Below are positions 12,451-28,079 of a DNA stretch of 64,000 nt, in pieces. Numbering within the stretch: the stretch's first letter is position 1; each line of letters opens with the position of its first letter. Made by a program: the position numbers and the translations under genes. Under the pieces are notes generated by a model that saw nothing but the letters and a program-made list of their open reading frames with translations, had not been told where the DNA came from and did not search any database. Origin of the DNA: Arenicella xantha (lineage in GTDB: Bacteria; Pseudomonadota; Gammaproteobacteria; Arenicellales; Arenicellaceae); the NCBI RefSeq assembly GCF_003315245.1, contig NZ_QNRT01000009.1, positions 1 to 64,000 of the forward strand, in the 5' to 3' direction.

Positions 12451-12469
12451 TATTCAATTCCAAGCGCCA

Positions 12470-13351
12470 CTACCAGTAGAAGAACACAACGATAATGTGC
12501 ACCGTTAAAGCCGCTAACAATGAGATCGATAACGGCACGTGAAAATACAGCCAAATTTTTAACAACGCACGAATTTGCACATCGCGCCGAATACGACGCA
12601 ATATTGTTTGACGAGCCGCAACCGTAGCCAATAGATTTTGAACCGACCCAGCCTCCTCGCCTCCAGTTAATACCGACAGTCGATTGGCCAAACATTCGAT
12701 CGCATTCGCCTGATCAGTATTCGATACTTCTTGCTCGACACCCGAATTAAGCGCAGCGGGTATACGTACGGTTGAATTGTCTTTAGCCGCTAGTTGCTGC
12801 CAGACACTACCACCAATGTGCGTGCCTTCAATGGTGTTTGCTATGAGGGCGCGCAAGTCTGTTGTAGATGCTTCTTTGAGCGCCCGCTTATCCAGTTTTT
12901 CAACTTTTTTTAACAGGTTCGCCAATGTATCACCAGCACGATTTTCGCTCATGCGCGATGGGTATCGCACGTAGGCGTAAAGACCATAAAATCCACTCAA
13001 AATCACAGCCACCATTAACACATACGCTAAGGTGTGGATGTTGTAACCAAATTGCCAACCTGAATGAAGGCTCGCAATCAAAATCAATGCCGTGCCAAGA
13101 TAAACATGTGCTGACGTCCAGCCTTGCACCGATCCCAAACTAGATGCATAGCTACGCTTCCGTACCCCTAGTAGCGACAGCCAGACAATCAAGGCCGCTC
13201 CGATCGTGCCAAGCGTGTAGCCCAGCCAAGTTCCACCATTCGGTCCGTCGATCGGGTCATGCCAGAAATAGGCCGCTGAACAAAGCAAGCTTACGCACAA
13301 CGCAAACCAAAAATACCGGCCTCTACGAAATCCAATTATTGACTGATACAT
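12470..13351 (-). CDS. b-type cytochrome membrane subunit
   Basis: A 293-residue integral membrane protein with about five hydrophobic helices: residues about 14-32, 43-63, 83-98, 107-128 and 262-291. Histidines sit within or next to the helices (SAHVYLG, SLHSGWQF, YFHVPLS, LTVHIIVVFF), the pattern expected for a bis-His haem b protein of the cytochrome b561 / ferric reductase type. A soluble loop of about 120 residues separates helices 4 and 5. Lying 12 bases after the flavoprotein/ferredoxin gene and 19 before the membrane-anchored decahaem gene, it is well placed to carry electrons across the inner membrane. The quinone or nucleotide specificity cannot be read. Confidence 0.75.
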   Translation of the reverse strand: MYQSIIGFRRGRYFWFALCVSLLCSAAYFWHDPIDGPNGGTWLGYTLGTIGAALIVWLSLLGVRKRSYASSLGSVQGWTSAHVYLGTALILIASLHSGWQFGYNIHTLAYVLMVAVILSGFYGLYAYVRYPSRMSENRAGDTLANLLKKVEKLDKRALKEASTTDLRALIANTIEGTHIGGSVWQQLAAKDNSTVRIPAALNSGVEQEVSNTDQANAIECLANRLSVLTGGEEAGSVQNLLATVAARQTILRRIRRDVQIRALLKIWLYFHVPLSISLLAALTVHIIVVFFYW

Positions 13352-13363
13352 ATTCGCTACACC

Positions 13364-15760
13364 CTAGCGTTCAACGCGACTGCTAACCAAATCGACAAAT
13401 TGCTTGGGATTCAAACGCATCGCCGCTCCGGTAGGACAAGAGCTGACGCATGCCGGACCCGCAGCGCGATCTTTACAGGCATCACACTTAACGGCCTTTT
13501 TGATATCTTGCGATGGATCTTTCTGCTTGCCACCAGGACCAGGTCCTTTGCCAGTTAAAAGCCAATGCAACAAACCCGGCTTTTCGGCGGGTTCAGTTTC
13601 CAAGGAAATCACTTCGTATGGGCAGTTGCGCACACAGTTGCCGCATCCGATGCACGCTTCTTGGTCAATAAAGACCTCACCATCGGAAGCACGGTGAATG
13701 GCATCTGGAGGGCAGTCCTTCATACAATGCGGATGCTCACAATGGCGGCACGAAATTGGCACATGAATACTAGCGAACGACGCGCCGGCCTCCCGGTCTA
13801 AGCGAGAGTTTCCATCATGAGTTTCAGCACATGCTTTCTCGCAGTTGTCGCAACCGACACACAAAGACTCGTCAATAAGCAGCACATCGGTGCCCTCGCC
13901 CAAGCCTTCACGCATAAAGAACGACATTAACTCACCACCACGTGGTTCGGCCTCCATTTTAGCTTCAACCGTTAGCCGCTCGCGGACGTGCGCTTGCACC
14001 TGCTGACGCATGCCTGAATCTTTTTCTAACAGTGACAAAAAGCTGTTCTTACTTAAGCAAATTGTCTCAGTTCGCACATTGGCTCGTACGGTGTCGGTGC
14101 GAATCCCGTCGCCCAGCGCGCCCGCCTCACCAAAGTAGTGACCAACGGGCAAATACGAGGTAATGACTTCATGTTCCTCGGCTTGTTTTATTGAGGTAAC
14201 AGATCCAACCCGAATCAAATGCACTTCATCACCAGAGGTGCCTTGGGTATAGATATCTTCGCCCGCATCAAACATTTTCAGTCCACTGTCTTGCACCACA
14301 GTGGTCAGTTCGGAGTGTGGTGTGTTGGGGGTAAACTTTGAATGCAATGCTCTGAGGATAAACGCCTCATCCAGTACACGCTTCACTTCATCAACCGAAC
14401 TCAACAACTTAACCATGGTACGTCGAGGTGTTTCAACCACCACACAGCCTTCGCCAGCGTAAACCGTCGCGGTACGTCGTCGCCCGGATATCAAACTCTG
14501 TTCGCCAAAAAAGCCACCGCGATTGAAATGAAATTCTCCAACCCCGGGCAAACTCACAAATGCATTGCCATCAATCACCACGAAAAAGGTGTCGGTGAAT
14601 TCACCACTTACACAGAGTTCATCGCCCGGCGCTCGATACTGCACTTTACTGTCGAGAATGAATTCACGAAAAGTCAGAGGGTTAATGTCACGATAAATTG
14701 GTGATGATTGCTGCAGGTACACCAAGAGTTCCGCAACCGATTTGTCGTACGGAAGCCCCTTAAACGCTTCAACTAATAATGGATGATCAGCCGGCTCAAT
14801 ATCGTTGCCTAGTATGTATTCGACAACCTCATAGCCTTGGTTCATCGCTTGCTTGATCAGCGGATATCCGCCCAATGCGCCGATCACGTAGATCCCGTTC
14901 ACATTCGACTCATACTTAGCGCTTAGTTCAGGCAGCGATGCAGGATTGTCATTTGGGAACTCAATACCAAATGATTCCACCAATTTACGCGGAGGAATTG
15001 CACCTAAACGAGCAATCACGCGATCAACAGGAATGGCAACTTCACCGGTCGGGGTATTCAGAACAAACAAGTAACGACTCTCGTCGTCGGGGTTTAGCTC
15101 GATGCGACCAGGATTAGACTCATACTGACAGTCGATTTTTCCGTCGCTAATAGCGCCCATAATGGCGTCCAAGTTGCCTTGCTTGGCACGCGCAAATTCG
15201 TCTTTTCGGTTAATGATGGTCACGTGATTTCGATCAGCAAGACCAATGGCATTTTCAATTGCCGCATCACCAGCACCAACTACGGCAATACGCTCATCAT
15301 TGTATTCTGCCGGATCATCCAGCTGATATTGGACGTGTTCAAAATCGGCTCCTGGGCATGGCAGCTTGCGTGGATTACCCTGCACACCGATACCGAGAAT
15401 TATTGACTTAGCGCCAATTTTATCGCCAGACGTAGTGGTGATTACAAAGTTCCCCTGGCTGCCTTCTATGCCGGAGACTTCACTGTTATATCGTATATTG
15501 GTGTTGGTTGCCGAAAGCCCTTGATACCACTCATCTAAAATATTCTCACGCGTGTCAGCGGTGAATTTTAGCGGACTCCGTAATGGTAAGCGCGCAGGCG
15601 TATCCATTACGTGCTTGCCCTTCTGGTATTTTTGTATGGTGTTCGAATGCTTGGGCGATCCTTCGAGTAAAACGTGCGATACCCCTAGCTCAGCGGCATG
15701 TGCAGCAGCACTCATTCCACCTGGACCAGAACCCACTACTGCGATATCAAACAATTCCAC
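13364..15760 (-). CDS. Flavoprotein / double cNMP-binding / 4Fe-4S ferredoxin fusion
   Basis: A protein of about 798 residues joining three modules. Residues 1-335 are a thioredoxin-reductase-like FAD/NAD(P) unit, with VVGSGPGGMSAA for FAD, VVGAGDAAIENA for NAD(P), and a terminal YVIGALGGYPLIKQA. Residues about 365-615 hold two cyclic-nucleotide-binding folds, each with a phosphate-binding-cassette-like segment (FGEQSLISGRRRTATV and FGEAGALGDGIRTDTV). Residues about 630-785 carry four cysteine clusters of the FdhB/DmsB type (CVGCDNCEKAC, CRHCEHPHCMKDCP, CIGCGNCVRNCP, and a CDAC...CVSSCP set). No CXXC disulphide of a true thioredoxin reductase is visible. It probably moves electrons between NAD(P)H and the b-type subunit on the cytoplasmic side. 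The GTG at 15760 has AAGGGG upstream; a TTG at 15766 is the alternative. Confidence 0.85.
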   Translation of the reverse strand: MELFDIAVVGSGPGGMSAAAHAAELGVSHVLLEGSPKHSNTIQKYQKGKHVMDTPARLPLRSPLKFTADTRENILDEWYQGLSATNTNIRYNSEVSGIEGSQGNFVITTTSGDKIGAKSIILGIGVQGNPRKLPCPGADFEHVQYQLDDPAEYNDERIAVVGAGDAAIENAIGLADRNHVTIINRKDEFARAKQGNLDAIMGAISDGKIDCQYESNPGRIELNPDDESRYLFVLNTPTGEVAIPVDRVIARLGAIPPRKLVESFGIEFPNDNPASLPELSAKYESNVNGIYVIGALGGYPLIKQAMNQGYEVVEYILGNDIEPADHPLLVEAFKGLPYDKSVAELLVYLQQSSPIYRDINPLTFREFILDSKVQYRAPGDELCVSGEFTDTFFVVIDGNAFVSLPGVGEFHFNRGGFFGEQSLISGRRRTATVYAGEGCVVVETPRRTMVKLLSSVDEVKRVLDEAFILRALHSKFTPNTPHSELTTVVQDSGLKMFDAGEDIYTQGTSGDEVHLIRVGSVTSIKQAEEHEVITSYLPVGHYFGEAGALGDGIRTDTVRANVRTETICLSKNSFLSLLEKDSGMRQQVQAHVRERLTVEAKMEAEPRGGELMSFFMREGLGEGTDVLLIDESLCVGCDNCEKACAETHDGNSRLDREAGASFASIHVPISCRHCEHPHCMKDCPPDAIHRASDGEVFIDQEACIGCGNCVRNCPYEVISLETEPAEKPGLLHWLLTGKGPGPGGKQKDPSQDIKKAVKCDACKDRAAGPACVSSCPTGAAMRLNPKQFVDLVSSRVER

Positions 15761-15925
15761 CTGCAACCCCTTATTATTGTTATTCCTCCACCTTACATCA
15801 GTTTATAGTAAACCGATGCCTAATTGAAGAACCTGTTGCAATTAGCGATCCAACGCATTCATTCGCCATGAGCCCAAACTATCGGCTATGATAAGAAAGT
15901 CACATTAGCGGCTTATGGGTGCCCA
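15761..15925. promoter_or_regulatory. Divergent promoter region between the cytochrome operon and its paralogue
   Basis: This 165-base gap separates the start of the seven-gene minus-strand operon from the plus-strand pentahaem cytochrome, so both promoters must lie in it. A TATGAT at 15887-15892 could be the -10 of the plus-strand gene and a TATAAA-like element on the minus strand near 15806-15812 could be that of the operon. Neither has a good -35. A GGAGG lies on the minus strand but is too far from the likely start codon. Confidence 0.4.
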
Positions 15926-17263
15926 ATGCTTCAGCAACTTTCGATTCGTTCTCACGCTGTACTCGCTTGCTTAATCGCAAGCTGCGTACTGATTAGTTCA
16001 GACTCACTAGCGCAAATTAATAATGCGGAGAGCGAACACTCCACCGCTCACCTTGGAGTCGCGAGTTGCTCAGCCAGCACCTGTCACGGCAGTACCGTAC
16101 CGTATACCGAATCTAATGTACTGCAAAATGAATTCCGCACTTGGTATGAACTCGACCCGCATGCCCGAGCCTACCAAACCTTGTTGACCGACGAGTCGGC
16201 CAAGATCGCCCGCAAGCTCGGCCTCGAGTCCGCTAGCACAGCTGACACGTGCTTAACTTGCCACGCCGATAACGTCGCACCAGCGCAACGTGGCGCTGAC
16301 TTTCGTCTACAGGACGGCGTTGGCTGCGAAGCCTGTCATGGCGGCGCAGAAAACTACTTAAAATCTCACACCTTACAAGCGCACATAGATAATTTGAGTG
16401 CCGGCTTGAGAAAAACTGAAGACCCTCTAACCCGCGGCAAGCTATGCGTTAGCTGCCATGTTGGCGGTCAACAAACACGCCAAATCACACATCAAATCAT
16501 GGGCGCAGGACATCCTCGCCTCAGTTTTGAACTCAATACCTTCAGTAGCATTCAACCCGCCCATTACATGGTTGACGAAGACTATCGACAACGCAAAGGT
16601 GAGGTCAGCGCAATCTCGACTTGGGCGATGGGACAAGTGGTTGCAGCTGAACAGCTACTGCTAAACGTAGCAAACAAACCTCGCGCAGGACTGTTTCCAG
16701 AACTCTCGCATATGGACTGTCTAGGCTGCCATCAGTCAATGAGTAAGATCACATGGATGCCAGACTCAGTAACGCAATTACCAAGCGGCACGCTGCGCTA
16801 CCAAGATGCGCATTTATTAAGTAGCTACCGAATTGCATCCGTGGTGGCACCGGAAATGGCGCCAACTCTACTCAAATCTATTCGCAAATTTTTAACTGAA
16901 GCGGCCACTCAAGAGAATCCCAATACCTTAGTACAGCCACTCACTGAACAACTATCTGAGCTGCAGCTCAAACTCGCCGCATCGACAATTTCGGCTCAGC
17001 AGACTTACCAACTCATTGCAGCGCTAGTTGACTACGGCATCGAATCAGGGCACCACTCTTATGCTTCAGCCGAGCAGCTGGCTATGGGATTAAACTCATT
17101 GTTTAATGCGTTGTCTCAATCAAATTTTGACGCACAAACTAAGCAGCGTTTAATTCCCATAATTAATGAATTATTTACCTCGGCGGCGGATCCTGAACGT
17201 TACAACGCGGCCGCATTTATGCGCAATTTAAGACGTATTAAACCAGCAATGAGTGAACTCTAG
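15926..17263 (+). CDS. Exported pentahaem c-type cytochrome, paralogue
   Basis: A 445-residue exported cytochrome that is a clear paralogue of the gene product at 2095-3435. It has a signal peptide (core AVLACLIASCVLISSDSLAQ), a CX4CH site (C48 to C53, H54), then CLTCH, CEACH, CVSCH and CLGCH. Shared blocks include GVASC, NVLQNEFRTW, GVGCEACHGGAEN and HQIMGAGHPRLSFEL. The C-terminal 170 residues are helical and lack haems. It is transcribed away from the operon, so it may be expressed separately, giving two interchangeable periplasmic carriers for different conditions. This functional split is inference. Confidence 0.85.
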   Translation: MLQQLSIRSHAVLACLIASCVLISSDSLAQINNAESEHSTAHLGVASCSASTCHGSTVPYTESNVLQNEFRTWYELDPHARAYQTLLTDESAKIARKLGLESASTADTCLTCHADNVAPAQRGADFRLQDGVGCEACHGGAENYLKSHTLQAHIDNLSAGLRKTEDPLTRGKLCVSCHVGGQQTRQITHQIMGAGHPRLSFELNTFSSIQPAHYMVDEDYRQRKGEVSAISTWAMGQVVAAEQLLLNVANKPRAGLFPELSHMDCLGCHQSMSKITWMPDSVTQLPSGTLRYQDAHLLSSYRIASVVAPEMAPTLLKSIRKFLTEAATQENPNTLVQPLTEQLSELQLKLAASTISAQQTYQLIAALVDYGIESGHHSYASAEQLAMGLNSLFNALSQSNFDAQTKQRLIPIINELFTSAADPERYNAAAFMRNLRRIKPAMSEL

Positions 17264-17290: not shown

Positions 17291-18217
17291 CTAGTTGTCA
17301 GCCAACAGAGAAAGCGTCGCGGTTGCTTCGCCTGACGTTAGCACAACGCTATTAGCTTGGATTTCAGTGACTGTCCATGCTTGTATGAAATCACCGATTG
17401 TGACTCGGTAGCTTTGCCCAGTTCGGGTATCCGCAATAATCGCTGTTTGTGAGTTGCTGGACATCGATATTGCGCTAAGTCGATAGTGACCTGCGCTGGG
17501 ATTTTCCAACTGCTGTCTATAATCAGCATCAAATAGGCCCACTACCTGCGTTCTTGAACCAGGTCGAGATTTACTTTGTGAGTCAATTTCTTGCGGCGAA
17601 ACAATATCAAATACCACCGGCCTAACTCCAGCACTAACAGCCCGCGCACGCAACGACTCACTAATGTATGCCACGAACACCACCGCCGTGCCATCAAGCT
17701 CAAAACTTGGCGTATTGGCCGCACGTAAGTCATGCCGACGCAGTGACAACAACTCGAACTGAAGTTTTGGTCTTAATGTATCAAGCATTGGTAACAGACT
17801 ATCTAATTGTTCGCTTTTGATTCGAAAATTTATTTCGAGACGCGCCCTCGACACAGCATCATCGTGCTCGTCAATTGATGGCCTGAGGCTTGAAATACTG
17901 GCATCGTGATTCACAAATAGAGCCTTAACAGACTCTTGAAGATGGTGACCAACCAAACTACCTATTGCGCTAGAACTAAGGTCGCCGCGGGCAAATTTAT
18001 CGCGTAGCCCTGACTCCAATAGCTGGGACATCCCTGCGTTAGACTGCTGCTGATTACGTTGCTCGTCCAACGCCGCTCGCAACGAATTTGTGTGCTGTCT
18101 ATGCGACTCAAAGCTGCTTAATACCGGCCTGACAGCAACCGACCACAACAGCCATAACGCTGCGGCTAGTAACAGGTAGGCCAGCACCGACTGGCTCAAT
18201 TGACTACGACTAATCAT
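17291..18217 (-). CDS. gspM: Type II secretion GspM-like protein with GspC-like C-terminal domain
   Basis: A 308-residue inner-membrane protein. One N-terminal transmembrane helix (about residues 7-27) is followed by a coiled-coil stretch and a ferredoxin-like GspM domain to about residue 195. A linker leads to residues about 244-305, which read HYRLSAISMSSNSQTAIIAD, then SYRVTIGDFIQAW and VVLTSGEATATLSL. This matches the pattern of the GspC homology region, the periplasmic domain that contacts the GspD secretin. The ATG at 18217 has AGGAGGG upstream and overlaps the gspL stop by 8 bases. It is the last gene of the gsp operon. The fusion is read from pattern, not alignment. Confidence 0.68.
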   Translation of the reverse strand: MISRSQLSQSVLAYLLLAAALWLLWSVAVRPVLSSFESHRQHTNSLRAALDEQRNQQQSNAGMSQLLESGLRDKFARGDLSSSAIGSLVGHHLQESVKALFVNHDASISSLRPSIDEHDDAVSRARLEINFRIKSEQLDSLLPMLDTLRPKLQFELLSLRRHDLRAANTPSFELDGTAVVFVAYISESLRARAVSAGVRPVVFDIVSPQEIDSQSKSRPGSRTQVVGLFDADYRQQLENPSAGHYRLSAISMSSNSQTAIIADTRTGQSYRVTIGDFIQAWTVTEIQANSVVLTSGEATATLSLLADN

Positions 18218-19199
18218 CCGCGCCCTCCTGAGTAGTATCAGTCGCGGCAAATTTCAACTTCAGTCGAAAACGTTCGACATCTCGCGCTCCGTCGGCGGAA
18301 ATTGCCGATACAAACTCGCTGTCTATGACCAAATCATTGGTGTCGACTCGAGTTCTAACCAACGATGAACTTCGTGCCCGCATATCAAGCACCAAAGTAT
18401 GAGCGTTCAGTATTGCTTGATCGACGACGGCATCATTCGGCAAAGTGCGCGACAGCGACTCCAAATAGTTCACCGTTGTGGCAACGCTCGAGCCTTGGCC
18501 ACTAGTCATTATCACATCAGAATCAAACTCAAGCCCGCTATTACTCTGATTTAATGCACTAATTTTCTGCTGCAAACTGGTTTGCAATTTGCTTTCTTGA
18601 CTCCACCAGTAACCGCTCAAACCGAACAAAGCAATCAGCGTAACAGCGCCAAGTACTAGTCGGCGTTGGTATCGGTTGCGCGGCACAGCACGAGCTTGAC
18701 CCGCATCACCAGCAAAATCATGAAACTCCACAAAGCGCCGTTGTTGTGCTGCATCAAAGGCCAAACCGCTAATTGAAAGCAAGGCTTCCTTACACGCATC
18801 CAGCGGTTCTACGAGCTCTTGTCGTAACACTGCATCGACCCGAGCTCCAGCGTCCGCAGCAACATACCAAAGCTCCTCTGCTTTAAACGGCATGAGCTCC
18901 GCAACCACCGCATCAACAGACATTCCCCGTTTATTAAGTGGCACAGCGATTGAAATAACATTATCGGCGGGAACCAATAAGTAGACTTTTACACGACCCG
19001 ACGACCGCATTATACGCGTAACTTCGACCGGATCTAAGACTCGATTTTGATCTCGATCAGGCAAATAAAGTCTGTTATCTGAAGATGAATAGGCAACGAC
19101 AGCGGGTTGCTTCGCACGAAATGCAAATGGCATGCCAAGTCCCTGAGCCCACCATGAGAGGAACCGCCTGACGCTTTGCATTGTGTGTGTCTTATTCAT
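18210..19199 (-). CDS. gspL: Type II secretion GspL-like protein
   Basis: A 329-residue protein of the GspL/PilN class. Residues about 20-165 form the cytoplasmic part that docks on GspE, here shorter than in typical GspL (about 380-400 residues). A transmembrane helix follows at about residues 181-199 (LVLGAVTLIALFGLSGYWW), then a coiled coil (LQTSLQQKISALNQ) and a periplasmic ferredoxin-like domain. It lies between gspK and gspM, as expected for gsp operons. A 119-base gap separates it from gspK, large enough for an internal promoter. The start could also be the internal ATG at 19181. Confidence 0.75.
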   Translation of the reverse strand: MNKTHTMQSVRRFLSWWAQGLGMPFAFRAKQPAVVAYSSSDNRLYLPDRDQNRVLDPVEVTRIMRSSGRVKVYLLVPADNVISIAVPLNKRGMSVDAVVAELMPFKAEELWYVAADAGARVDAVLRQELVEPLDACKEALLSISGLAFDAAQQRRFVEFHDFAGDAGQARAVPRNRYQRRLVLGAVTLIALFGLSGYWWSQESKLQTSLQQKISALNQSNSGLEFDSDVIMTSGQGSSVATTVNYLESLSRTLPNDAVVDQAILNAHTLVLDMRARSSSLVRTRVDTNDLVIDSEFVSAISADGARDVERFRLKLKFAATDTTQEGADD

Positions 19200-19318
19200 A
19201 GCGTTGGTATTATGAACCAGTCAGCGCTCCATGTGCACTATCATGTGTCAGCTTAGCGTCTTATGGCGCCGCGAACAGTCTTCAAATGAGCCTTACTCTG
19301 TTGCAAACAATCGACGAC

Positions 19319-20149
19319 TTATAAACGCGCGACCGAATCATACAGACGCCCTTCCGCATTAGTCATTTTGATGACCTCGCTAGAAACGCGCGTCGCGCTC
19401 CCAACTTTACTTGTCACGGTAATTCGATAATACGCTGATAAGCGAGTATCCAACATCGTATGATGCACCGGCGTGCTGACTAACGCTAGAGAATTTGGTA
19501 TGCGAGCATCAACCAAAGACTGTTGCTGACGCTCTAACAGCAAACGTTGTCGGTCCGCAACGGCCAGATTAGGTAACCAGCTCAACACCATCTCACTCGC
19601 CAACTGAGGATGCACAGTCGCGACACCATTGTGTAAGCTGACGTTCGGAATAAGACGCTGGTAAGCTCCAGGGGTAGACTCCAACCACTCGCGTAGCAGA
19701 CGATAAGTCAACGGTTTACCTTGCTGAACTAAAGCCTGCACTCGCTGAACAATGGTGGCAGTAGATGCCGAGTCCAAACCAACCTCAGACAGAATAGCGA
19801 CTAATACATCATCAGCAACATAGCGTAGGTCAAGTCTAGCTGCTTCATTTTCCACTTCGATCATCACCGAACCCGCTCGCAGATTAAGATTCAATATGTG
19901 CGCCGGCGTTCCGGTCGGTGCCACAGCAACTCGGTTTGACGCGAGGGTCAACGCAGCATGACGAATGCCCGCCTGATGCAGAAAATTATGCTTAAGCCGC
20001 AACATATCTAGACGTGTGGCTTCAGTGTTCGCACTATATTGTGACGCTAAACCAACGGTTAACATCGCTAAAATAGCGGCAATCCAAACCGCCGTTAGCA
20101 ACGCAAACCCATTTGTGCTACGCACCGAAACTGGACGACGCTTAATCAT
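19319..20149 (-). CDS. gspK: Type II secretion minor pseudopilin GspK
   Basis: A 276-residue minor pseudopilin. A basic leader ends in NGFALLTAVWIAAILAMLTV, with cleavage after G. As is typical of GspK the residue at +5 of the mature protein is not glutamate. The large globular part holds a helix-rich domain (LREWLESTPGAYQRLIPNVS). GspK caps the pseudopilus tip with GspI and GspJ. It is slightly shorter than usual (about 300-330). Its ATG overlaps the gspJ stop as ATGA, implying translational coupling. Confidence 0.85.
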   Translation of the reverse strand: MIKRRPVSVRSTNGFALLTAVWIAAILAMLTVGLASQYSANTEATRLDMLRLKHNFLHQAGIRHAALTLASNRVAVAPTGTPAHILNLNLRAGSVMIEVENEAARLDLRYVADDVLVAILSEVGLDSASTATIVQRVQALVQQGKPLTYRLLREWLESTPGAYQRLIPNVSLHNGVATVHPQLASEMVLSWLPNLAVADRQRLLLERQQQSLVDARIPNSLALVSTPVHHTMLDTRLSAYYRITVTSKVGSATRVSSEVIKMTNAEGRLYDSVARL

Positions 20150-20640
20150 CTTAACGCGAACCTCCAGCGCTCAAACTCACCATGCTGACGCCAATAGAAC
20201 ACGATTTGCTGAGGAGGCTCATCACCTTGCCAAGCATCCAGTTCAACACCGTCCATCACATAACGAAAACCAGCTTGCTGTAAGCCGCTCATCAATACCG
20301 ACCAAGAGTCCTGTAAATCCGATTGCACTTGCAACATCCCTTCGTTCGAAACTCTAAACAACACCGTATTCGCACCGCTCAACCAATCGGCATCTCGGCT
20401 CTCAAAGTTCAAGGTAAGTGCTGTGTGGTTCCCCCCTATTTTGGCACCAGACAGCGCCGCCAATTGCAAAGTACGATGCGTAATTCTGCGCTCAGTCTGC
20501 TGCATTACTTCCTGTTGAATACGACGCTTAGCATTAACCACATCGGCAATCGCTTGATAGGCAATCAGACTCAGCATTGCAAACAACGACAGGACCAACA
20601 AAAACTCCACTAAAGTAAACCCGACCTGCCGCGCGCTCAT
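20146..20640 (-). CDS. gspJ: Type II secretion minor pseudopilin GspJ
   Basis: A minor pseudopilin of about 164 residues beginning MSARQVG, with prepilin peptidase cleavage before FTLVEFLLVLSLFAMLSL. Glutamate is at position 5 of the mature protein. The rest matches GspJ, including RRITHRTLQLAALSGAK and a C-terminal IVFYWRQHGEFERWRF strand region. I placed the start at 20640 because it gives a normal 7-residue leader. Frames starting at 20715 or 20757 would give leaders of 32 or 46 residues, though the one at 20715 overlaps the gspI stop and could be the coupled start. Confidence 0.78.
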   Translation of the reverse strand: MSARQVGFTLVEFLLVLSLFAMLSLIAYQAIADVVNAKRRIQQEVMQQTERRITHRTLQLAALSGAKIGGNHTALTLNFESRDADWLSGANTVLFRVSNEGMLQVQSDLQDSWSVLMSGLQQAGFRYVMDGVELDAWQGDEPPQQIVFYWRQHGEFERWRFALR

Positions 20641-20704
20641 GAACGAACCAGGCAGACATCGTCCTTCGGTTTGCTGCCCAATAACTATTGAGAGTCGTCG
20701 TGAC

Positions 20705-21202
20705 CTATTGGTCATTTTGCATCTCACGCAAAGTATCATGCACTTGATCGGAGACAAGAGCCTGATGCTGCAACGAAAAAACGATTGTGCTTAAGTGCAC
20801 TTGCCGTGATAAATCAGGCAACACAACTTCCAGCTCAGCCTGCATTGCAACAACACGATTAGTCATTGTTTTGACCTCTGGTGCAAGGTCCGTGGCAGTG
20901 ATTGGGGTCAATACCAAAGTCCACTCCATACCTGCGGCATCACCATTGAAAGAACCGTCGGCAGGCGGATAAACCCCGTGCTGCACTCCAGCAACCAGCG
21001 GTTTAGCATCTAGCGAAGCGAGATGGCTGGCTGCACGATGATGCGCTCGCTGCAATTGAGCGGTAATCGCAACTTGTTTATAGGCTTTCGCAACAATCGA
21101 TGACGCGCCGGTTACCGCTACCACAGTAAGCGACAGCGCCACCAGCACCTCGATCAGCGTGAACCCGCGATTACAAAAATTATTTAGACCGCGCGGCATC
21201 AA
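20705..21202 (-). CDS. gspI: Type II secretion minor pseudopilin GspI
   Basis: A 165-residue minor pseudopilin. The leader MMPRGLNNFCNRG is followed by FTLIEVLVALSLTVVAVTGA, the pseudopilin helix with glutamate at mature position 5. Position in the operon between gspH and gspJ, and the segment MEWTLVLTP near residue 80, support GspI (family length about 120-130, so this one is longer). The start overlaps gspH by 23 bases. It would form the pseudopilus tip with GspJ and GspK. Confidence 0.8.
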   Translation of the reverse strand: MMPRGLNNFCNRGFTLIEVLVALSLTVVAVTGASSIVAKAYKQVAITAQLQRAHHRAASHLASLDAKPLVAGVQHGVYPPADGSFNGDAAGMEWTLVLTPITATDLAPEVKTMTNRVVAMQAELEVVLPDLSRQVHLSTIVFSLQHQALVSDQVHDTLREMQNDQ

Positions 21203-21611
21203 TCGTCACCTGTGACGTAATTCGATCAACGCGCAACAACCATGCTTGATCAATTTGTGGAGCGACACCGTCCGAAGAGGCGCGATCTCGAAGCAATAAG
21301 GTGCCGCCCGTGCTACTACCATCTGGATTAAAAGTCAGTGATTGCTGTTCGCTTACCTGCAACACCGAAGCGAGCGAACTCGGCTGATGACACCGTCCAC
21401 TCTGCCAATGTAGCGATTGTTGTAGCTCCTGCGACTTGAGCCTACAGTTGCGCAGTGCTGTCGCCAACGATTGCACTGCGCTCTGGGTACGCACCGGCCC
21501 CAACCAAGATTGCATACCGCGCGGCACCAGAGCCAACAATAATCCCATCAAGGCGATCACTACGAGCAACTCAAGCATGGTGAACCCAAGGTCATTGTTG
21601 GTAGAAATCAT
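21180..21611 (-). CDS. gspH: Type II secretion pseudopilin GspH
   Basis: A 143-residue pseudopilin. The leader MISTNNDLG precedes FTMLELLVVIALMGLLLALV with glutamate at mature position 5. The C-terminal half has LTFNPDGSSTGGTLLLRD, a pattern characteristic of GspH rather than the major pseudopilin GspG. The calcium-site and glycine-rich C-terminal pattern of GspG are absent. It overlaps gspF by 4 bases (ATGA). The place where gspG normally lies, between gspF and gspH, is empty. Confidence 0.83.
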   Translation of the reverse strand: MISTNNDLGFTMLELLVVIALMGLLLALVPRGMQSWLGPVRTQSAVQSLATALRNCRLKSQELQQSLHWQSGRCHQPSSLASVLQVSEQQSLTFNPDGSSTGGTLLLRDRASSDGVAPQIDQAWLLRVDRITSQVTIDAARSK

Positions 21612-22630
21612 AGGTCAAATTGCCCCACACTTTGTAGGGCGGAGAACACAATCAACACCACCGAACCGATTGCCAAGCCCATCACGATAATCAGCACCGG
21701 CTGAGCGACCGCAGCTAAACGTTCGGCCGCAACGGTAAACTCGCGTTCTAAGCGCTTAGATAAACGTGCCAATGTGTCAGCAAGCCGTCCACTCTGTTCG
21801 CCAGCCCGAATACCATGCGCAATTAAATCTCCTACATCGCCCATGGCCTGCACGGCATCACTCAAACGCTCGCCCTGCTGTACCCGCTCAATCACAAGTC
21901 TGAGCGACTCTTTACGCGCGCCCTGCGGCAGTCCCCGGCAGGCAATATCTAACGCGGCCGTCTGCGATAATCCAGCACCCAGTAGGCTCGACAAGGTTCC
22001 GGTTAATCGTGCTAATTCCAATTTAGTTCGCAGCGGACGTAACGGGCTTGGCCAAGCACTCGGTATTCGATCGGCAATGTCATGGCGAAACAACCAAAGC
22101 AGCGCACCAGCAAACCCAGTCAAAGCCAAGAACCACATCCCCCAATGATCAGCAAATACACCAAAACCCACCAAACCATTAACCAGCGCCGACTGTGAAC
22201 CTCCAAACGAATCAACCACGGCAGCCAACTGCGGCAGAATCAGCAACAGAATCAGTAACAAACTGACCAACAACACACCACAGAGAATCGCGGGGTAAAT
22301 CAATGCGTTAATAATTTTGGATCTAAGTTCTTGCGCACGGCTTAATTGCTCAGTCACCAACTCCAGCGCCGTCGGAAGATCCCCCGCAGCTTCTCCTGCC
22401 GCCACCATGCCGCACACTACGCCATCAAAGTGGCTAGGAAATCGGCCCAGTTGCTGATTAAACAAGCCACCTGCTCGCACTCCGGCAATCAATTCTCCAA
22501 GAAGGTTTTGTTGCTCATCATTAGCGGTGGAGCTAGATAGTGTCACCAGCGCAGCATCTAACTCGGCGCCAGATTCAAGCAACAGCCCTAAGTCACTTAA
22601 AAAATCAATTACCCATTGCTGTGTATTCAT
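21608..22630 (-). CDS. gspF: Type II secretion inner-membrane platform protein GspF
   Basis: A 340-residue polytopic protein with two repeated T2SSF domains. The first runs from about residue 8 to 125 and the second from about 207 to 330, each ending in a long hydrophobic helix (ALIYPAILCGVLLVSLLLILL and PVLIIVMGLAIGSVVLIVF). It is shorter than typical GspF (about 400), missing the N-terminal segment before the first domain. It overlaps gspE by 4 bases. It forms the platform that couples the GspE motor to pseudopilus assembly. Confidence 0.9.
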   Translation of the reverse strand: MNTQQWVIDFLSDLGLLLESGAELDAALVTLSSSTANDEQQNLLGELIAGVRAGGLFNQQLGRFPSHFDGVVCGMVAAGEAAGDLPTALELVTEQLSRAQELRSKIINALIYPAILCGVLLVSLLLILLLILPQLAAVVDSFGGSQSALVNGLVGFGVFADHWGMWFLALTGFAGALLWLFRHDIADRIPSAWPSPLRPLRTKLELARLTGTLSSLLGAGLSQTAALDIACRGLPQGARKESLRLVIERVQQGERLSDAVQAMGDVGDLIAHGIRAGEQSGRLADTLARLSKRLEREFTVAAERLAAVAQPVLIIVMGLAIGSVVLIVFSALQSVGQFDL

Positions 22631-24261
22631 GAATGCTCTACAGCGTCGCTGACGTTAACCTCAAGATTACTCAAAGCCTCATCACCGACTACCCGAAGCC
22701 GCTCGAGCTCATCAATACAACCCGACGCGAGCAAGCGCGCCGCATCATCGGCCAAACTCATATTGTCTAAGCGGATCGACTTAAGTAACTGCTTATTACT
22801 GGCCTTACTGTTAACCCAATCAACACCGACGAGCGATGGCAATACCTCGGCAATGGCAGTGCGGCCAAGATAGCCGGTGGACTGACAATGCTCACAATCG
22901 GCGCCCCTGGCTAGTGTTTGACAAAAGCGACAGCTTAATCGAACTAAACGTTGTGCCACCACAGTTTTAAGCGTCGCGCTAATCAAGTAGTCTGGCACAC
23001 CGAAATCACGCAATCTTGCCAGTGTTTCAATTGCACTATTGGTATGTAAAGTCGTCAATACCAAATGTCCAGTCAGTGCCGCTTGAGCTGCTAGTTTTGC
23101 AGTCTCCGCATCGCGAATTTCACCAACCATAATAACATCGGGATCTTGTCGCAACACCGACCGCAATGATTTGGCAAAACTAACACCGTGCTCCGTATCA
23201 ACTTGAATTTGATTGATTCCTGGCATGGCTATTTCCACCGGGTCTTCAATACTTATTACTTTTAACTGATCCAAATTGAGCCGATTGAGTAAGGCATACA
23301 GCGTGGTCGACTTACCCGAACCGGTTGGACCGGTAATTACAATCAAGCCCTGCCGTTGCCGCATGGCGGCGTGCAAACAGTCAATCACCGATTGGCGATA
23401 ACCTAATTCGCTAAGAGAAGCATGCCCGAGCGTGGGATCCAGTAAGCGAATCACCGCACTCTCACCATCATGCAATGGCATTGTGGAAACCCGCATATCG
23501 ATCAGCTGCCCGTCGGCTGGAAACTTAAAGCGCCCATCTTGCGGCTGCCGGCGCTGAGTCACATCTAAACCCGACATCAATTTAATTCGCGCCATGGTTG
23601 GAGCAATACGGCTTTGGTCAATGGAACCTGCGCTTTGCAATACGCCCGATACCCTAAAGCGGACCCGCAACGCTTGCTGGTAAGGCTCGAAATGGATATC
23701 TGATGCTTTGGCAGCAATGGCACGCTGCAATAGACTGTGCACGGCTCGCACCACCGCCGACTCATTGTCGATGTCAGTGATTGCGCTATTCGGCATAGCT
23801 TGAGCAGACGAGTCGGCTTCAACTTGATCCACTTGCTGACGATAAAGTCGACTCAGTCCGGCCAAAATATCGCTTCGCGCGGCGACCACCGGAATCACTG
23901 CACATTGGCATTTAGAGCGCATCACTTTTAGGGTAAATTCGTCAGACGGATCAACCATCGCAAGCCGTAAACCTGCCGTTGATTGATCTATCGGTAACAC
24001 TTCTTGTTGATGCAAAAATGAACCCAGAGCATCCAGCTCAGCAATCGCTTGAACTGGCAACTGGTGTGCGGTCAGTAGCGGCACGTCGAACAGTTCGCAC
24101 ATTGTTTGTGCAAACACTGTTTCAGGAATACTCCCGTGCCGCAGCAAGGACAGCAACGATGGTTGCGAGGCGTCCTCAACCGCATCACGCAGTAAAGACT
24201 TTGATAAATAGCCGGCGTCGGTGAAGCGCTCAAGCGCGGCACGATACAAGGAATGGTTCAT
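22627..24261 (-). CDS. gspE: Type II secretion ATPase GspE
   Basis: A 544-residue hexameric motor ATPase. The N-terminal domain (about 1-145) is of the MshEN/T2SSE-N type. The ATPase core has Walker A GPTGSGKST (311-319), an Asp box around ISIEDPVE, Walker B DPDVIMVGEIRD (373-384) and a His box HLVLTTLHTN. A C-terminal zinc site is formed by C444, C447, C456 and C459. It is the first gene of the minus-strand gsp operon and divergent from gspD. A few residues into the protein there is no sign of truncation. Confidence 0.94.
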   Translation of the reverse strand: MNHSLYRAALERFTDAGYLSKSLLRDAVEDASQPSLLSLLRHGSIPETVFAQTMCELFDVPLLTAHQLPVQAIAELDALGSFLHQQEVLPIDQSTAGLRLAMVDPSDEFTLKVMRSKCQCAVIPVVAARSDILAGLSRLYRQQVDQVEADSSAQAMPNSAITDIDNESAVVRAVHSLLQRAIAAKASDIHFEPYQQALRVRFRVSGVLQSAGSIDQSRIAPTMARIKLMSGLDVTQRRQPQDGRFKFPADGQLIDMRVSTMPLHDGESAVIRLLDPTLGHASLSELGYRQSVIDCLHAAMRQRQGLIVITGPTGSGKSTTLYALLNRLNLDQLKVISIEDPVEIAMPGINQIQVDTEHGVSFAKSLRSVLRQDPDVIMVGEIRDAETAKLAAQAALTGHLVLTTLHTNSAIETLARLRDFGVPDYLISATLKTVVAQRLVRLSCRFCQTLARGADCEHCQSTGYLGRTAIAEVLPSLVGVDWVNSKASNKQLLKSIRLDNMSLADDAARLLASGCIDELERLRVVGDEALSNLEVNVSDAVEHS

Positions 24262-24523: not shown

Positions 24524-26584
24524 ATGCGTGCCTCATCGTTCACCACACTTCGATCATTGAATTATATTAAGCAGCTTGGGGCATCAGCACTCCGACCATC
24601 ACTGCTCGCCTTTGGCGCAATTGTCATCAGTGGCTGCGCTTCCTCTCAAAATAGTTGGCGCGGCGTCGATAACAATCACTTTGAGGCCGCTCAAATACCG
24701 AGCAACCAAGACACATCGGTCATTATGCCGCCCAACACTGAACTGGCAAATTCAGCACAAGCACAAGTCTACCCGGCACAAGCCGTGCTACCCGCGACGC
24801 GCATAGACGCGAAGTCGCAAACCGCGCAGCCGCCAATGAACTTAGATACATTAGCCAGCGGCGACATCGTACTCCGCTTCGTGGCCACGCCGGTGCGCGA
24901 CGTGGTACAAATTATTCTCGGGGACAATTTAGGCCAATCTTTCGAAATCGATGACGCCGTTCAAGGCGCAATTAGCTTGGATAAACAAACCGGCTTTCAG
25001 CAACAAGACCTGATTCCAGTGCTAGAAACACTGCTTGCAAGCATTGACGCACAACTTGTAAAAACCAACGGCACTTATAGAGTAACAACGGGGAGCCAGA
25101 TTGCGCTACCGCACCAACTAAGTAATCTGCAACTGATTCCACTACGACATATCGATGCGAGCGAATTCATAAAAGTATCGGCCAACTTAGGGGCGAGTAT
25201 CACCGCGCTTCCCAAAGGTAATTTGATAGCCGTCAGTGGTAGCGATCAGCAAATTGAGCAAGCTCGACGCCTAGCTAAAAGCATTGACTTAAATTGGTTA
25301 AAAGGTGTTTCGATAGGAATCTATCCAATTCACCACACCAATGCCGACACGCTGCGCCAAGAAATTGTTGGCATGTTTGGACAAGAAATAGACGCCGACA
25401 CGTCAGGCGCATTAAGACTGGTGACCATCGAACGCAGCAACTCCTTGCTAGTGGTAGCGCGACACGCAGACACCATACAAACGGTCGGAGATTGGATTCA
25501 ACGCCTCGATCAAGTAAGCCATAACGGTAATGGGCGCTTCTTTATTTATCGCGTTCAAAATGGTCGAGCAAAGGACTTAGCGGAGCTATTGAGTCAAATG
25601 TTTACTGGCACCGCTAGCCAACCAACAGATGATCGCCGAAACGATACTGAACTCAATGACAATAACCACAGCCCTGACCCCAGCAATCGTTTCAATGTTA
25701 TTGCCGATGAAAGCACCAACAGCATTATTGTCTCTGGCGGTCCACAATACTATCAAGCGGTACGGCAAGCTATGGAGCAATTAGATAGCACACCAATGCA
25801 AGTCCTGGTAGAAGCGCGCATTATGGAACTAACGCTGAGCGATGACCTCGAGTACGGCTTGGAATGGTTCCTCAACGGGTCACGAGCGTCTAGCAATACC
25901 TCTGCCTCTCTGGATTTTGGGCGAGCAGGTATTAACGCAACACAGCCTGGTTTCAGCTACCTCATTGAGCGCGCTGGACAAGTGCGCGCAGCCTTAAATG
26001 GTTTGGCCGACGACTCACGTTTAAAAGTATTATCGTCACCGTCACTCATGGTGCTCAATAACCGCACCGCTAGCATTCTAGTCGGTGATGAAATCCCGGT
26101 CCCTACCCGTCAAGTGGTCAGCAATATTTCTCCCGAAGCACCAACCGTAAACGAAATAGAGTATCGCAATACTGGCATTCTATTGACCGTCACACCACGA
26201 GTAAATTCGAGCGGCATGGTAACTATGGATATTAGCCAGGAAGTAAGTAGCGTGGTCAATAATACCGTGTCGGACATTGATGCCCCAACCATTCAGCAGC
26301 GCCGAGTGAATAGCACGGTATCGATCCGTAGCGGTCAAACTGTGGTGCTAGGTGGGCTAATTCGAGAACAAGATTCCAGCGGCGAATCTGGCGTACCATT
26401 TCTAAAAGACATACCTGGGCTCGGCAAGCTTTTCAGCACCACACACAATTCAGCGCAGCGCACCGAACTAGTAGTATTGATTACGCCTCAAGTTATCGTC
26501 AGCGCCGCAGACGCATCCTCAGTTACTGAAGAGTTTCGTCAAAAGTTGATCGGCCTAAAACCACTTCCACTTGACCGCTTATAA
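24524..26584 (+). CDS. gspD: Type II secretion outer-membrane secretin GspD (lipoprotein type)
   Basis: A 686-residue secretin. The N terminus is a lipoprotein signal with lipobox ISGC (C38), so it may reach the outer membrane as a self-piloting lipoprotein, as in HxcQ-type systems, without a separate pilotin. Domains follow in order: N0 (about 112-190), N1-N3 (about 195-450) and the secretin pore (about 450-670). The pore has MQVLVEARIMELTL, LSSPSLMVLNNRTASI, the VGDEIPVPT segment, VLGGLIREQ and FLKDIPGLGKLFS, all signature blocks. Transcribed divergently from the other gsp genes. Confidence 0.92.
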   Translation: MRASSFTTLRSLNYIKQLGASALRPSLLAFGAIVISGCASSQNSWRGVDNNHFEAAQIPSNQDTSVIMPPNTELANSAQAQVYPAQAVLPATRIDAKSQTAQPPMNLDTLASGDIVLRFVATPVRDVVQIILGDNLGQSFEIDDAVQGAISLDKQTGFQQQDLIPVLETLLASIDAQLVKTNGTYRVTTGSQIALPHQLSNLQLIPLRHIDASEFIKVSANLGASITALPKGNLIAVSGSDQQIEQARRLAKSIDLNWLKGVSIGIYPIHHTNADTLRQEIVGMFGQEIDADTSGALRLVTIERSNSLLVVARHADTIQTVGDWIQRLDQVSHNGNGRFFIYRVQNGRAKDLAELLSQMFTGTASQPTDDRRNDTELNDNNHSPDPSNRFNVIADESTNSIIVSGGPQYYQAVRQAMEQLDSTPMQVLVEARIMELTLSDDLEYGLEWFLNGSRASSNTSASLDFGRAGINATQPGFSYLIERAGQVRAALNGLADDSRLKVLSSPSLMVLNNRTASILVGDEIPVPTRQVVSNISPEAPTVNEIEYRNTGILLTVTPRVNSSGMVTMDISQEVSSVVNNTVSDIDAPTIQQRRVNSTVSIRSGQTVVLGGLIREQDSSGESGVPFLKDIPGLGKLFSTTHNSAQRTELVVLITPQVIVSAADASSVTEEFRQKLIGLKPLPLDRL

Positions 26585-26665: not shown

Positions 26666-27922
26666 TTAAAGATCAATTACCGTTTCGCCTTTTGCCAGCT
26701 CAATATGTTGATCGTCAGTGCAATGCTGCTTTAACATTTCATCGATTTCCACTTTCTCTTGCCAAGATCGGCTCGGATCGTGATGCCCTATGTAAGTGCG
26801 CCGAATGTTGCACGCTTGGGCCATTTCGACCACATCTTCGATGCAACTGTGTCCCCAGTCACGACGAGCAGTTCCTATGCCGCTGTCTAGGCTCTTGTCG
26901 CCATCATATTCGGCCCGTAAAAATTGACCATCCCGGTACACCACATCAGCATCCTTAGCAAATTCACGCAAACGTCGCTCAGCGTCGACACTCTCTACTT
27001 GTGGCGGATATTCTGGGTTGGGGCCATGCCGTAATTCATGATCGGTGCAGTAAACAAACACCTTACCGTTGTGCTCAATACGATACGCGAGGCACGGATC
27101 AGGATGAAACACTTCAAACGCTTGTATCTTGGTTTTACCAATCCACACCGGCTGATTCCAATCGTGGATGTGTTGTGCGACCGAATCTGCCTCGCTCGCG
27201 CCAAGCTCATCACTACTTTTGTTTGACTTGTCTTTGCTTAGATCGCGCAGCTCAGTCGCTTCAAAATCGGCCGGCATTAGTTCATAGGTTAATGGCGTCT
27301 GTCGACCAGGTTCACTCTTATCAACTTTATGCGAGAACACTCCAAGATAATGATCCAGTGCATTCAAATATGAAGCGTTGCCATACACATGAATATGGTT
27401 GGCTGGATTGAAACACACATCCGCTTGATCAAAACCTTCGGTGTGATCAAAGTGAGCATGCGTCCCAAAGATCGTCAATGACCGTGATGCTTGGCTTGAC
27501 CACTTTAATTCTAAGTCTTGCGCACATAATCGAAAGCCACTACCGCAGTCAAATACAATGTCATAGCCGTCCGAAGTTTCTAAGCGAAAACACGAGGTCC
27601 AGCCACCATAACTTGGTGCCTCAGGTGGCGCAATTTTCTCCCACAACGATTTTATTCGCTCAGGAGCAATCGACTCAGCCGAAAGAATTTCCGCCAAAGC
27701 GAGAGCTTCAGCTGTGGAACCAGCCTCAGAACCATTACCTGCCACATTGTTCTGATTGGACTCTGCAGTGCTTTGCGTTTTCAATAATGCAAAAACTCGC
27801 TCGAGTAACTCGACCTCAGTGCGCTCGCGCATCAGGTGCCGCTCGGCCCTGCGCGGATACACGGACCCACTTCCTTGCACACCATAGAAATGAATTCTTA
27901 GGTTGTTAATATCGCCCGCCAT
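26666..27922 (-). CDS. MBL-fold metallo-hydrolase
   Basis: A 418-residue cytoplasmic metallo-beta-lactamase-fold hydrolase. The metal motif is THAHFDH (about residue 154), with downstream ligands in FEVFHPDP, YCTDHE and YIGHHDPS. The fold resembles phosphodiesterase members of the superfamily (PhnP/RNase Z-like). The N-terminal insertion at about residues 35-85 is low-complexity and Ala/Glu/Ser rich. It is divergent from the CHASE2 adenylate cyclase gene, with about 155 bases between the likely starts, so it may be a cyclic nucleotide phosphodiesterase acting with it. That substrate is an inference from context. Confidence 0.78.
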   Translation of the reverse strand: MAGDINNLRIHFYGVQGSGSVYPRRAERHLMRERTEVELLERVFALLKTQSTAESNQNNVAGNGSEAGSTAEALALAEILSAESIAPERIKSLWEKIAPPEAPSYGGWTSCFRLETSDGYDIVFDCGSGFRLCAQDLELKWSSQASRSLTIFGTHAHFDHTEGFDQADVCFNPANHIHVYGNASYLNALDHYLGVFSHKVDKSEPGRQTPLTYELMPADFEATELRDLSKDKSNKSSDELGASEADSVAQHIHDWNQPVWIGKTKIQAFEVFHPDPCLAYRIEHNGKVFVYCTDHELRHGPNPEYPPQVESVDAERRLREFAKDADVVYRDGQFLRAEYDGDKSLDSGIGTARRDWGHSCIEDVVEMAQACNIRRTYIGHHDPSRSWQEKVEIDEMLKQHCTDDQHIELAKGETVIDL

Positions 27923-28079
27923 AGCCCGCTCATTGAAATTCTTTATCGACTTATATCTTATCCGTTCGCCACTGACAACAGCATCTCACTCAAACACAGC
28001 ATTGAACGAACAAATTCACATCCACAAAGCTTGGTTTACGCGGTATATTGGGATCACAATAACAACAATAAATATCAAA

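What the first reader, a model, noticed from the sequence alone, without database searches (positions are those of the whole stretch)
17291..24261. Type II secretion operon without gspG and with a GspM-GspC hybrid
gspE-F-H-I-J-K-L-M are contiguous, mostly with ATGA overlaps, and the site between gspF and gspH where gspG normally lies is empty; gspF and gspH overlap by 4 bases. No separate gspC is seen. The C-terminal 65 residues of the GspM protein (about 244-305) match the GspC homology-region pattern. GspG is normally the essential major pseudopilin, so it is either encoded elsewhere or its role is taken by GspH or another protein.
Basis: partly seen in the sequence, partly recalled or inferred. 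Interest (0 to 1): 0.6.

Follow-up and report, generated by a model that had tools for sequence, protein, structure and literature searches.

The report
Second type II secretion system, pseudopilin-less
These marine bacteria carry a second protein-secretion machine that has lost the gene for its main filament subunit and has two of its membrane parts welded into one protein, so it probably borrows the filament subunit from the cell's other, complete machine.

Summary
gspE-F-H-I-J-K-L-M (17291-24261, minus) and a divergent gspD (24524-26584) form a T2SS of the Xanthomonas Xps kind; gspF and gspH overlap by ATGA and no gspG fits between. The last ~65 residues of 'GspM' are a GspC HR domain: profile-profile probability 98.4 to XpsN/GspC, and the AlphaFold2 model matches GspC-HR of 3OSS at Z 10.5, 1.4 Å over 61 residues. 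The genome (genus Arenicella) also carries a complete canonical T2SS in three loci, with its own gspC, gspG and an HR-free gspM. In 6 of 6 Arenicella copies readable at gspF's downstream end there is no gspG (one also lacks gspH); M and N(C) are fused wherever the joint is readable. In 35 of 35 non-Arenicella relatives holding F and H, G sits between them; M and N are separate in 38 of 38 with L and D. So G was lost, XpsM and XpsN fused (dropping XpsN's membrane helix), and GspF lost its N-domain on the Arenicella stem. Best mechanism: GspG comes in trans from the canonical system (inferred, untested). New variant of a known kind.

The parts
24524..26584 (+). gspD/xpsD secretin, lipobox-like N-terminus (read by eye), weak N0 domain match, divergent from the operon
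   Evidence: TIGR02517 382.6 bits over its 351.35 cut-off; Secretin, Secretin_N, N0 22.3 bits
22627..24261 (-). gspE/xpsE ATPase, Walker A, Asp box, Walker B-like box, His box and tetracysteine motif intact (motif names recalled)
   Evidence: Pfam T2SSE 8e-113; motif scan
21608..22630 (-). gspF/xpsF, 340 aa, lacks the N-domain of about 60 residues
   Evidence: T2SSF twice; TIGR02120 match starts at model position 71; 35 non-Arenicella F are 397 aa or longer
21608..21611 (-). ATGA junction of gspF and gspH, the site where gspG lies in relatives
   Evidence: sequence; 35 of 35 non-Arenicella loci with F and H have G between them
21180..21611 (-). gspH-type minor pseudopilin
   Evidence: hhalign to XpsH 96.0 %, to XpsG 0.2 % without the N-terminal helix
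20705..21202 (-). gspI-type minor pseudopilin
   Evidence: hhalign to XpsI 93.0 %
20146..20757 (-). gspJ-type minor pseudopilin
   Evidence: hhalign full length to XpsJ 98.4 % over 154 columns; body alone only 13.8 %
19319..20149 (-). gspK-type minor pseudopilin
   Evidence: hhalign to XpsK 99.0 % over 228 columns
18210..19199 (-). gspL/xpsL
   Evidence: hhalign to XpsL 99.0 % over 292 columns; no Pfam match
17291..18250 (-). fused xpsM-xpsN (GspM-GspC HR); probable start at the ATG of residue 12
   Evidence: T2SSM_b residues 98-180; hhalign to XpsM 97.8 %
17303..17494 (-). HR domain of GspC/XpsN at the C-terminus, residues about 253-316 of the fused protein
   Evidence: hhalign to XpsN 98.4 %, E 8.3e-15; Z 10.5, rmsd 1.4, 61 residues to 3oss_C

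Best explanation
This is a second, Xps-type type II secretion machine of the genus Arenicella, derived from an ancestor with the order E-F-G-H-I-J-K-L-M-N(C)-D. On the Arenicella stem gspG was deleted, xpsM and xpsN (the GspC of Xps systems) fused into one protein that keeps the XpsM membrane helix and drops that of XpsN, and GspF lost its N-domain (shown by comparison). The fused protein docks on GspL by its M domain and reaches the secretin N0 domain by its C-terminal HR domain, so inner platform and secretin are joined by one chain at a fixed one-to-one ratio of M to C (inferred from fold and family). ATPase E and platform F still drive filament growth under an H-I-J-K tip, and the shaft subunit is the GspG made by the complete canonical T2SS of the same cell, matured by the single prepilin peptidase (inferred, untested). 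The machine would then be obligately coupled to expression of the canonical system.
For: No room for G in 6 of 6 readable Arenicella operons, against G between F and H in 35 of 35 non-Arenicella loci. One GspG in the own genome, next to canonical gspF; a GspG next to canonical F in 6 of 7 carriers, the seventh (G009) being 85 % complete. Complete canonical set C to M in the own genome. Fusion: hhalign 97.8 % to XpsM and 98.4 % to XpsN, while the 18 other pairings of the two halves with M, N, E, F, G, H, I, J, K, L profiles give 24.5 % or less; GspC-HR fold; the XpsN profile finds nothing else in the genome. 40 of 41 XpsN have an N-terminal membrane helix by hydropathy; the five full-length fused proteins show one hydrophobic region near the N-terminus (in overlapping pieces in the window and L048) and none before the HR domain. 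All operon ORFs are open; E motifs intact; first and second codon positions change less than third positions between two species in nine of nine genes. H is XpsH-like, not G-like, and is itself missing in G011.
Against: No direct evidence that canonical GspG enters this machine. All 11 high-quality Arenicella genomes have a GspG whether or not they carry this operon, so co-occurrence cannot discriminate. One carrier, G009, showed no GspG (incomplete genome). In the searches made here no record was seen of one major pseudopilin being shared by two T2SS. The secretin N0 match is below Pfam's cut-off (22.3 of 27 bits), and the M-D contact is inferred.
Confidence: 0.6

Rival explanations
1. The machine works without any major pseudopilin: the minor pseudopilins (H-I-J-K, or I-J-K in G011) form only a short tip or gate plug that opens the secretin.
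For: Every Arenicella operon readable there keeps I and J, those readable further keep K, and no operon has regained a G. The N-domain of F, absent here, is dispensable but needed for full efficiency of PulG pilus assembly in Klebsiella PulF (PMC10790770, passages seen), which would fit a relaxed demand for filament growth.
Against: ATPase E and platform F, the filament-growing engine, are kept and constrained. GspG is on hand in 6 of 7 carriers. A review calls GspG assembly the principle of T2SS-driven secretion (PMC10128026, passages).
Confidence: 0.17
2. Another type IV pilin of the cell (PilA-like at C1:545 kb, a lone pilin at C5:230 kb, or one of the C1:44-51 kb set) is the shaft subunit.
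For: 14 prepilin-type motifs in the genome; several belong to no T2SS locus.
Against: None is linked to this operon; most look like ordinary type IV pilus genes (read by eye). GspG is the closer homologue of what was lost.
Confidence: 0.1
3. The operon is a decaying relic that no longer secretes.
For: Loss of G, of the F N-domain, and of H in G011; only 7 of 18 sampled Arenicella genomes carry the fused gene.
Against: All ORFs open in several diverged genomes, with more change at third than at first and second codon positions in nine of nine genes; ATPase motifs intact; tight overlaps kept; the fusion is itself conserved.
Confidence: 0.08
4. GspH of the window took over as major pseudopilin.
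For: H sits where G would be and has the GFxxxE motif.
Against: Body aligns with XpsH at 96.0 % and XpsG at 0.2 %; G011 has lost H too. An AF2 model of H was too poor to use (mean pLDDT 56.2).
Confidence: 0.05

Closest known systems
Xps type II secretion system of Xanthomonas (XpsE-F-G-H-I-J-K-L-M-N-D; order recalled) and its homologues in Competibacteraceae, Pseudomonas and others
   Same: Gene order E-F-(G)-H-I-J-K-L-M-N next to D in the homologues read here, subtype-b XpsM, XpsN/XpsC with HR domain, Xps-like secretin
   Different: No G; M and N fused with XpsN's membrane helix lost; F without N-domain; D divergent from the operon
Canonical T2SS of the same genome (D-E-F-G at C2, C at C3, H-I-J-K-L-M at C4)
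   Same: Same set of parts and, by inference, the donor of GspG
   Different: Separate C and M, full-length F (408 aa), own G; its D is 23-26 % identical to Arenicella D of this operon
XphA/XqhA of Pseudomonas aeruginosa
   Same: Precedent for a T2SS part encoded outside its machine's locus: a C-D pair described as a subunit of an Xcp hybrid (PMC6567927, passages; primary paper not read)
   Different: There the shared machine borrows C and D; here the inferred borrowing is of the filament subunit
MSH pilus loci without prepilin peptidase
   Same: A type IV filament locus thought to rely on another system's part (PMC6668835, passages)
   Different: Enzyme shared, not the filament subunit
Mitochondrial miT2SS
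   Same: A reduced T2SS (PMC10128026, passages)
   Different: Mirror image: it keeps GspG and lacks GspH, I, J, K
PilO and PilP of type IVa pili
   Same: Folds of the two halves of the fused protein
   Different: Separate proteins there

Membership tests
Type II secretion system | GspD secretin of the T2SS type | tested here: met
   TIGR02517 382.6 bits, cut-off 351.35; N0 match weak, 22.3 of 27 bits
Type II secretion system | GspE ATPase and GspF platform | tested here: met
   both score below the NCBIfam equivalog cut-offs
Type II secretion system | Major pseudopilin GspG encoded with the machine | tested here: not met
   none in the operon; the only one in the genome belongs to the canonical system
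Type II secretion system | Minor pseudopilins H, I, J, K | tested here: met
Type II secretion system | GspL and GspM | tested here: met
Type II secretion system | GspC with HR domain | tested here: met
Type II secretion system | Prepilin peptidase | tested here: met
   one in the genome, at C3:312 kb, beside the pilus-type E and F genes
Type II secretion system | Secretes folded proteins from periplasm to outside | not testable with these tools
   no cargo known
Xps-type T2SS | Separate xpsM and xpsN genes | tested here: not met
   fused; separate in 38 of 38 non-Arenicella loci with L and D
Xps-type T2SS | Order E-F-G-H-I-J-K-L-M-N-D | tested here: not met
   same order less G, with N fused to M and D divergent; ancestry is Xps-type
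GspC HR domain | HR fold | tested here: met
   Z 10.5 to 3oss_C, 61 residues, rmsd 1.4
GspC HR domain | Binds secretin N0 | not testable with these tools
   no complex prediction available here

The most novel reading that the evidence does not exclude
A type II secretion machine that exports proteins with no major pseudopilin at all, using only the minor-pseudopilin tip and a one-chain M-C strut to open the secretin.
Probability: 0.15. Interest if true: 0.85.

Novelty: new variant of a known kind. Interest (0 to 1): 0.55.

Why it matters
GspG is taken as the subunit whose assembly drives type II secretion. A conserved operon that lacks it forces a choice between two testable readings: two T2SS in one cell share one filament subunit, or a T2SS can work without a shaft. 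The natural M-C fusion also bears on an open question. In Klebsiella the measured C:M ratio is about 2:1 (PMC6882859, passages), and whether GspC dimers enter the platform is called unconfirmed (PMC11981180, passages). A protein that carries both in one chain fixes the ratio at 1:1 and suggests that GspC's own membrane helix can be dispensed with.

Tried and rejected
GspH as replacement for GspG: rejected on profile comparison and on the G011 operon without H. An AF2 model of H was too weak for a fold search (mean pLDDT 56.2), so none was run. A second GspG elsewhere in the genome: not found (PF08334, one match). A second XpsN-type gene in the genome: not found; PF11356 found only the canonical gspC. 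Cargo: no candidate tested; the neighbouring multihaem cytochrome genes are not always linked. dN/dS: synonymous sites saturated, so only codon-position differences are reported. The secretin tree is the quick tree, the careful search having run out of time; it groups the six Arenicella secretins at 100 but leaves their nearest neighbours unsure, with long branches. Vertical or mobile origin of the operon within Arenicella was not tested.

Papers (open-access PMC library only): searches. Their listings showed no title or abstract start describing a natural GspC-GspM fusion, a G-less T2SS, or T2SS of Arenicella; full texts were not read through. Passages were seen of PMC11981180, PMC5061722, PMC6567927, PMC6882859, PMC10128026, PMC6668835 and PMC10790770; the others appear in listings only.

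Script errors: a key could pick the wrong window record, and one search stopped with an error; and later read the window file explicitly and are the ones cited for counts. L110 was first scored as lacking N; reading it showed N present after M, run into the D frame across an ambiguous base, so 37 of 38 by model became 38 of 38. In G026 (L170) E, F, L, M, N are present but no pseudopilin gene follows F on the 14 kb read; it was not among the 35 and its G was not sought elsewhere. K-type and I-type ORFs in GC-rich loci sometimes read through neighbours, so ORF lengths there are mechanical.
Full report
What is there. Nine open frames make up the system: gspD (24524-26584, plus) and, divergent from it on the minus strand, E, F, H, I, J, K, L and a 319-residue 'GspM'. 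F ends and H begins on the same four bases, ATGA. Pfam and NCBIfam identify D, E and F well; H, I, J and K only weakly; L not at all. Profile-profile comparison with the homologues from named genomes settles them: Arenicella H to XpsH 96.0 %, I to XpsI 93.0 %, K to XpsK 99.0 % (bodies without the N-terminal helix), J to XpsJ 98.4 % at full length (13.8 % for the body alone), L to XpsL 99.0 %.

The hybrid. Residues 1-200 of the six Arenicella 'GspM' proteins align with 40 XpsM at 97.8 % (E 7.9e-13), and residues 236-319 with 41 XpsN at 98.4 % (E 8.3e-15). The other 18 pairings of these two halves with M, N, E, F, G, H, I, J, K and L profiles reach 24.5 % at most. XpsN is the GspC of Xps systems and was renamed XpsC (PMC11981180, passages). 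An AF2 model from four sequences (mean pLDDT 69.7; 80-87 by ten-residue block over residues 251-310) gives an M domain like PilO/PulM and a C-terminal six-stranded domain whose best match is GspC-HR in the GspC-GspD complex 3OSS: Z 10.5, rmsd 1.4 Å, 61 residues (Foldseek E 0.013, probability 1.00). PilP, the pilus counterpart, follows. Searched against the whole genome, the XpsN profile finds only this C-terminus (E 4.5e-9). 40 of 41 XpsN have a membrane helix near the N-terminus by hydropathy; the five full-length fused proteins have one hydrophobic region near the N-terminus and none before the HR domain. The HR domain therefore stays in the periplasm, carried by the M helix (inferred topology).

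The rest of the genome. The assembly is 4.44 Mb in 29 contigs, 99.3 % complete. It holds a complete canonical T2SS: D-E-F-G at C2:914-920 kb, C at C3:59 kb, H-I-J-K-L-M at C4:205-210 kb. Its gspM is an ordinary T2SSM of 166 aa. PF08334 finds one gspG, Peptidase_A24 one prepilin peptidase.

Relatives. Named loci show the genus is Arenicella: L092, L094 and L095 are titled so, L093 and L096 are Gammaproteobacteria MAGs whose contigs have the lengths of those of genus genomes G007 and G011. Of 49 loci fetched, 44 are not in this group. Of these 44, 35 hold both F and H, and all 35 have G between them; 38 hold L and D, and M and N are separate in 37 by model and in all 38 after reading L110. In Arenicella the F-to-H junction is readable in the window, G003, G007, G009 and G008, and F-to-I in G011, which lacks H as well: no G in 6 of 6. 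The M-N joint is readable in the window, G003, G007, G009, G011 and, truncated at its M end by the contig, G016: fused in 6 of 6. L092 and L095 are too short to tell. In the same order but other families, G021 and G027 have full operons with G and separate M and N; G026 has separate M and N but no pseudopilin genes beside F. With the secretin tree grouping Arenicella as one clade among G-bearing relatives (quick tree, deeper joins unsure), loss of G and fusion of M with N on the Arenicella stem is the simplest history. A third shared change is the loss of the GspF N-domain: window F has 340 residues, the other Arenicella F 343-356, while all 35 non-Arenicella F have 397 or more. In Klebsiella the N-domain of PulF is dispensable but needed for full efficiency (PMC10790770, passages).

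Where GspG comes from. 15 of 18 genus genomes have a full GspG (11 of 11 high-quality ones), and 6 of 7 carriers do; in those six it lies next to the canonical gspF. The seventh carrier, G009, is 85 % complete and showed none. Because non-carriers have it too, this shows only that the subunit is available. H cannot be the stand-in in general: it is XpsH-like and is missing in G011. The motor is intact and constrained (Walker A GPTGSGKS, EDPVE, LRQDPDVIMVGEIR, TGHLVLTTLHTN, tetracysteine; third codon positions change more than first and second in nine of nine genes between G003 and G007). Trans supply of GspG is therefore the best reading, at about 0.6, and remains untested. Precedents for sharing parts exist for the C-D pair XphA/XqhA and for the prepilin peptidase of MSH pili; in what I searched I found none for the filament subunit.

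How it would work. Inner platform: E hexamer, F, L and the M half of the hybrid. Strut: the disordered linker (residues 203-241, pLDDT under 50) and the HR domain reaching the secretin N0. Filament: GspG shaft from the canonical operon under this system's own H-I-J-K tip. In Klebsiella PulC:PulM is about 2:1 and in the Xanthomonas model six XpsCLM trimers meet a 15-mer secretin; the hybrid can only give 1:1 unless it is cleaved or joined by the canonical GspC.

Verdict. Real, conserved, and a new variant of the Xps-type T2SS. It fails one defining feature of a self-sufficient T2SS, its own major pseudopilin, and most likely works like a T2SS with a borrowed shaft.

Noticed in passing
window 11008-17263: Electron-transfer cluster beside the operon: multihaem cytochrome c (11008-12450), cytochrome b561-like (12470-13351), an 800-aa oxidoreductase with cNMP-binding and 4Fe-4S domains (13364-15766), cytochrome c554-family protein (15926-17263). 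Still beside the fused gene in L047, L049, L050, and with about 5 kb inserted in L054; not in L048 or L051.
   Followed up: partly
L051 9270-12067 (G011): This Arenicella operon has lost gspH as well as gspG: F is followed directly by I.
   Followed up: partly
window 21608-22630: GspF lacks the N-domain found in all 35 non-Arenicella relatives.
   Followed up: partly
L170 (G026:C65): An Xps-type operon of another family in the same order with L, M, N, E, F but no pseudopilin genes after F in the 14 kb read; they may lie elsewhere.
   Followed up: no
L134: A Pseudomonadota MAG with D divergent from E-F-G-H-I-J-K as in Arenicella but with gspG present: a possible intermediate arrangement.
   Followed up: no
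window 26666-30341: A metallo-beta-lactamase-fold protein (26666-27922, minus) and a CHASE2 adenylate/guanylate cyclase (27903-30341, plus) next to gspD.
   Followed up: no
G000:C5:230.3 kb (L023 7349-7849): A lone 166-aa prepilin-type protein between unrelated genes.
   Followed up: no
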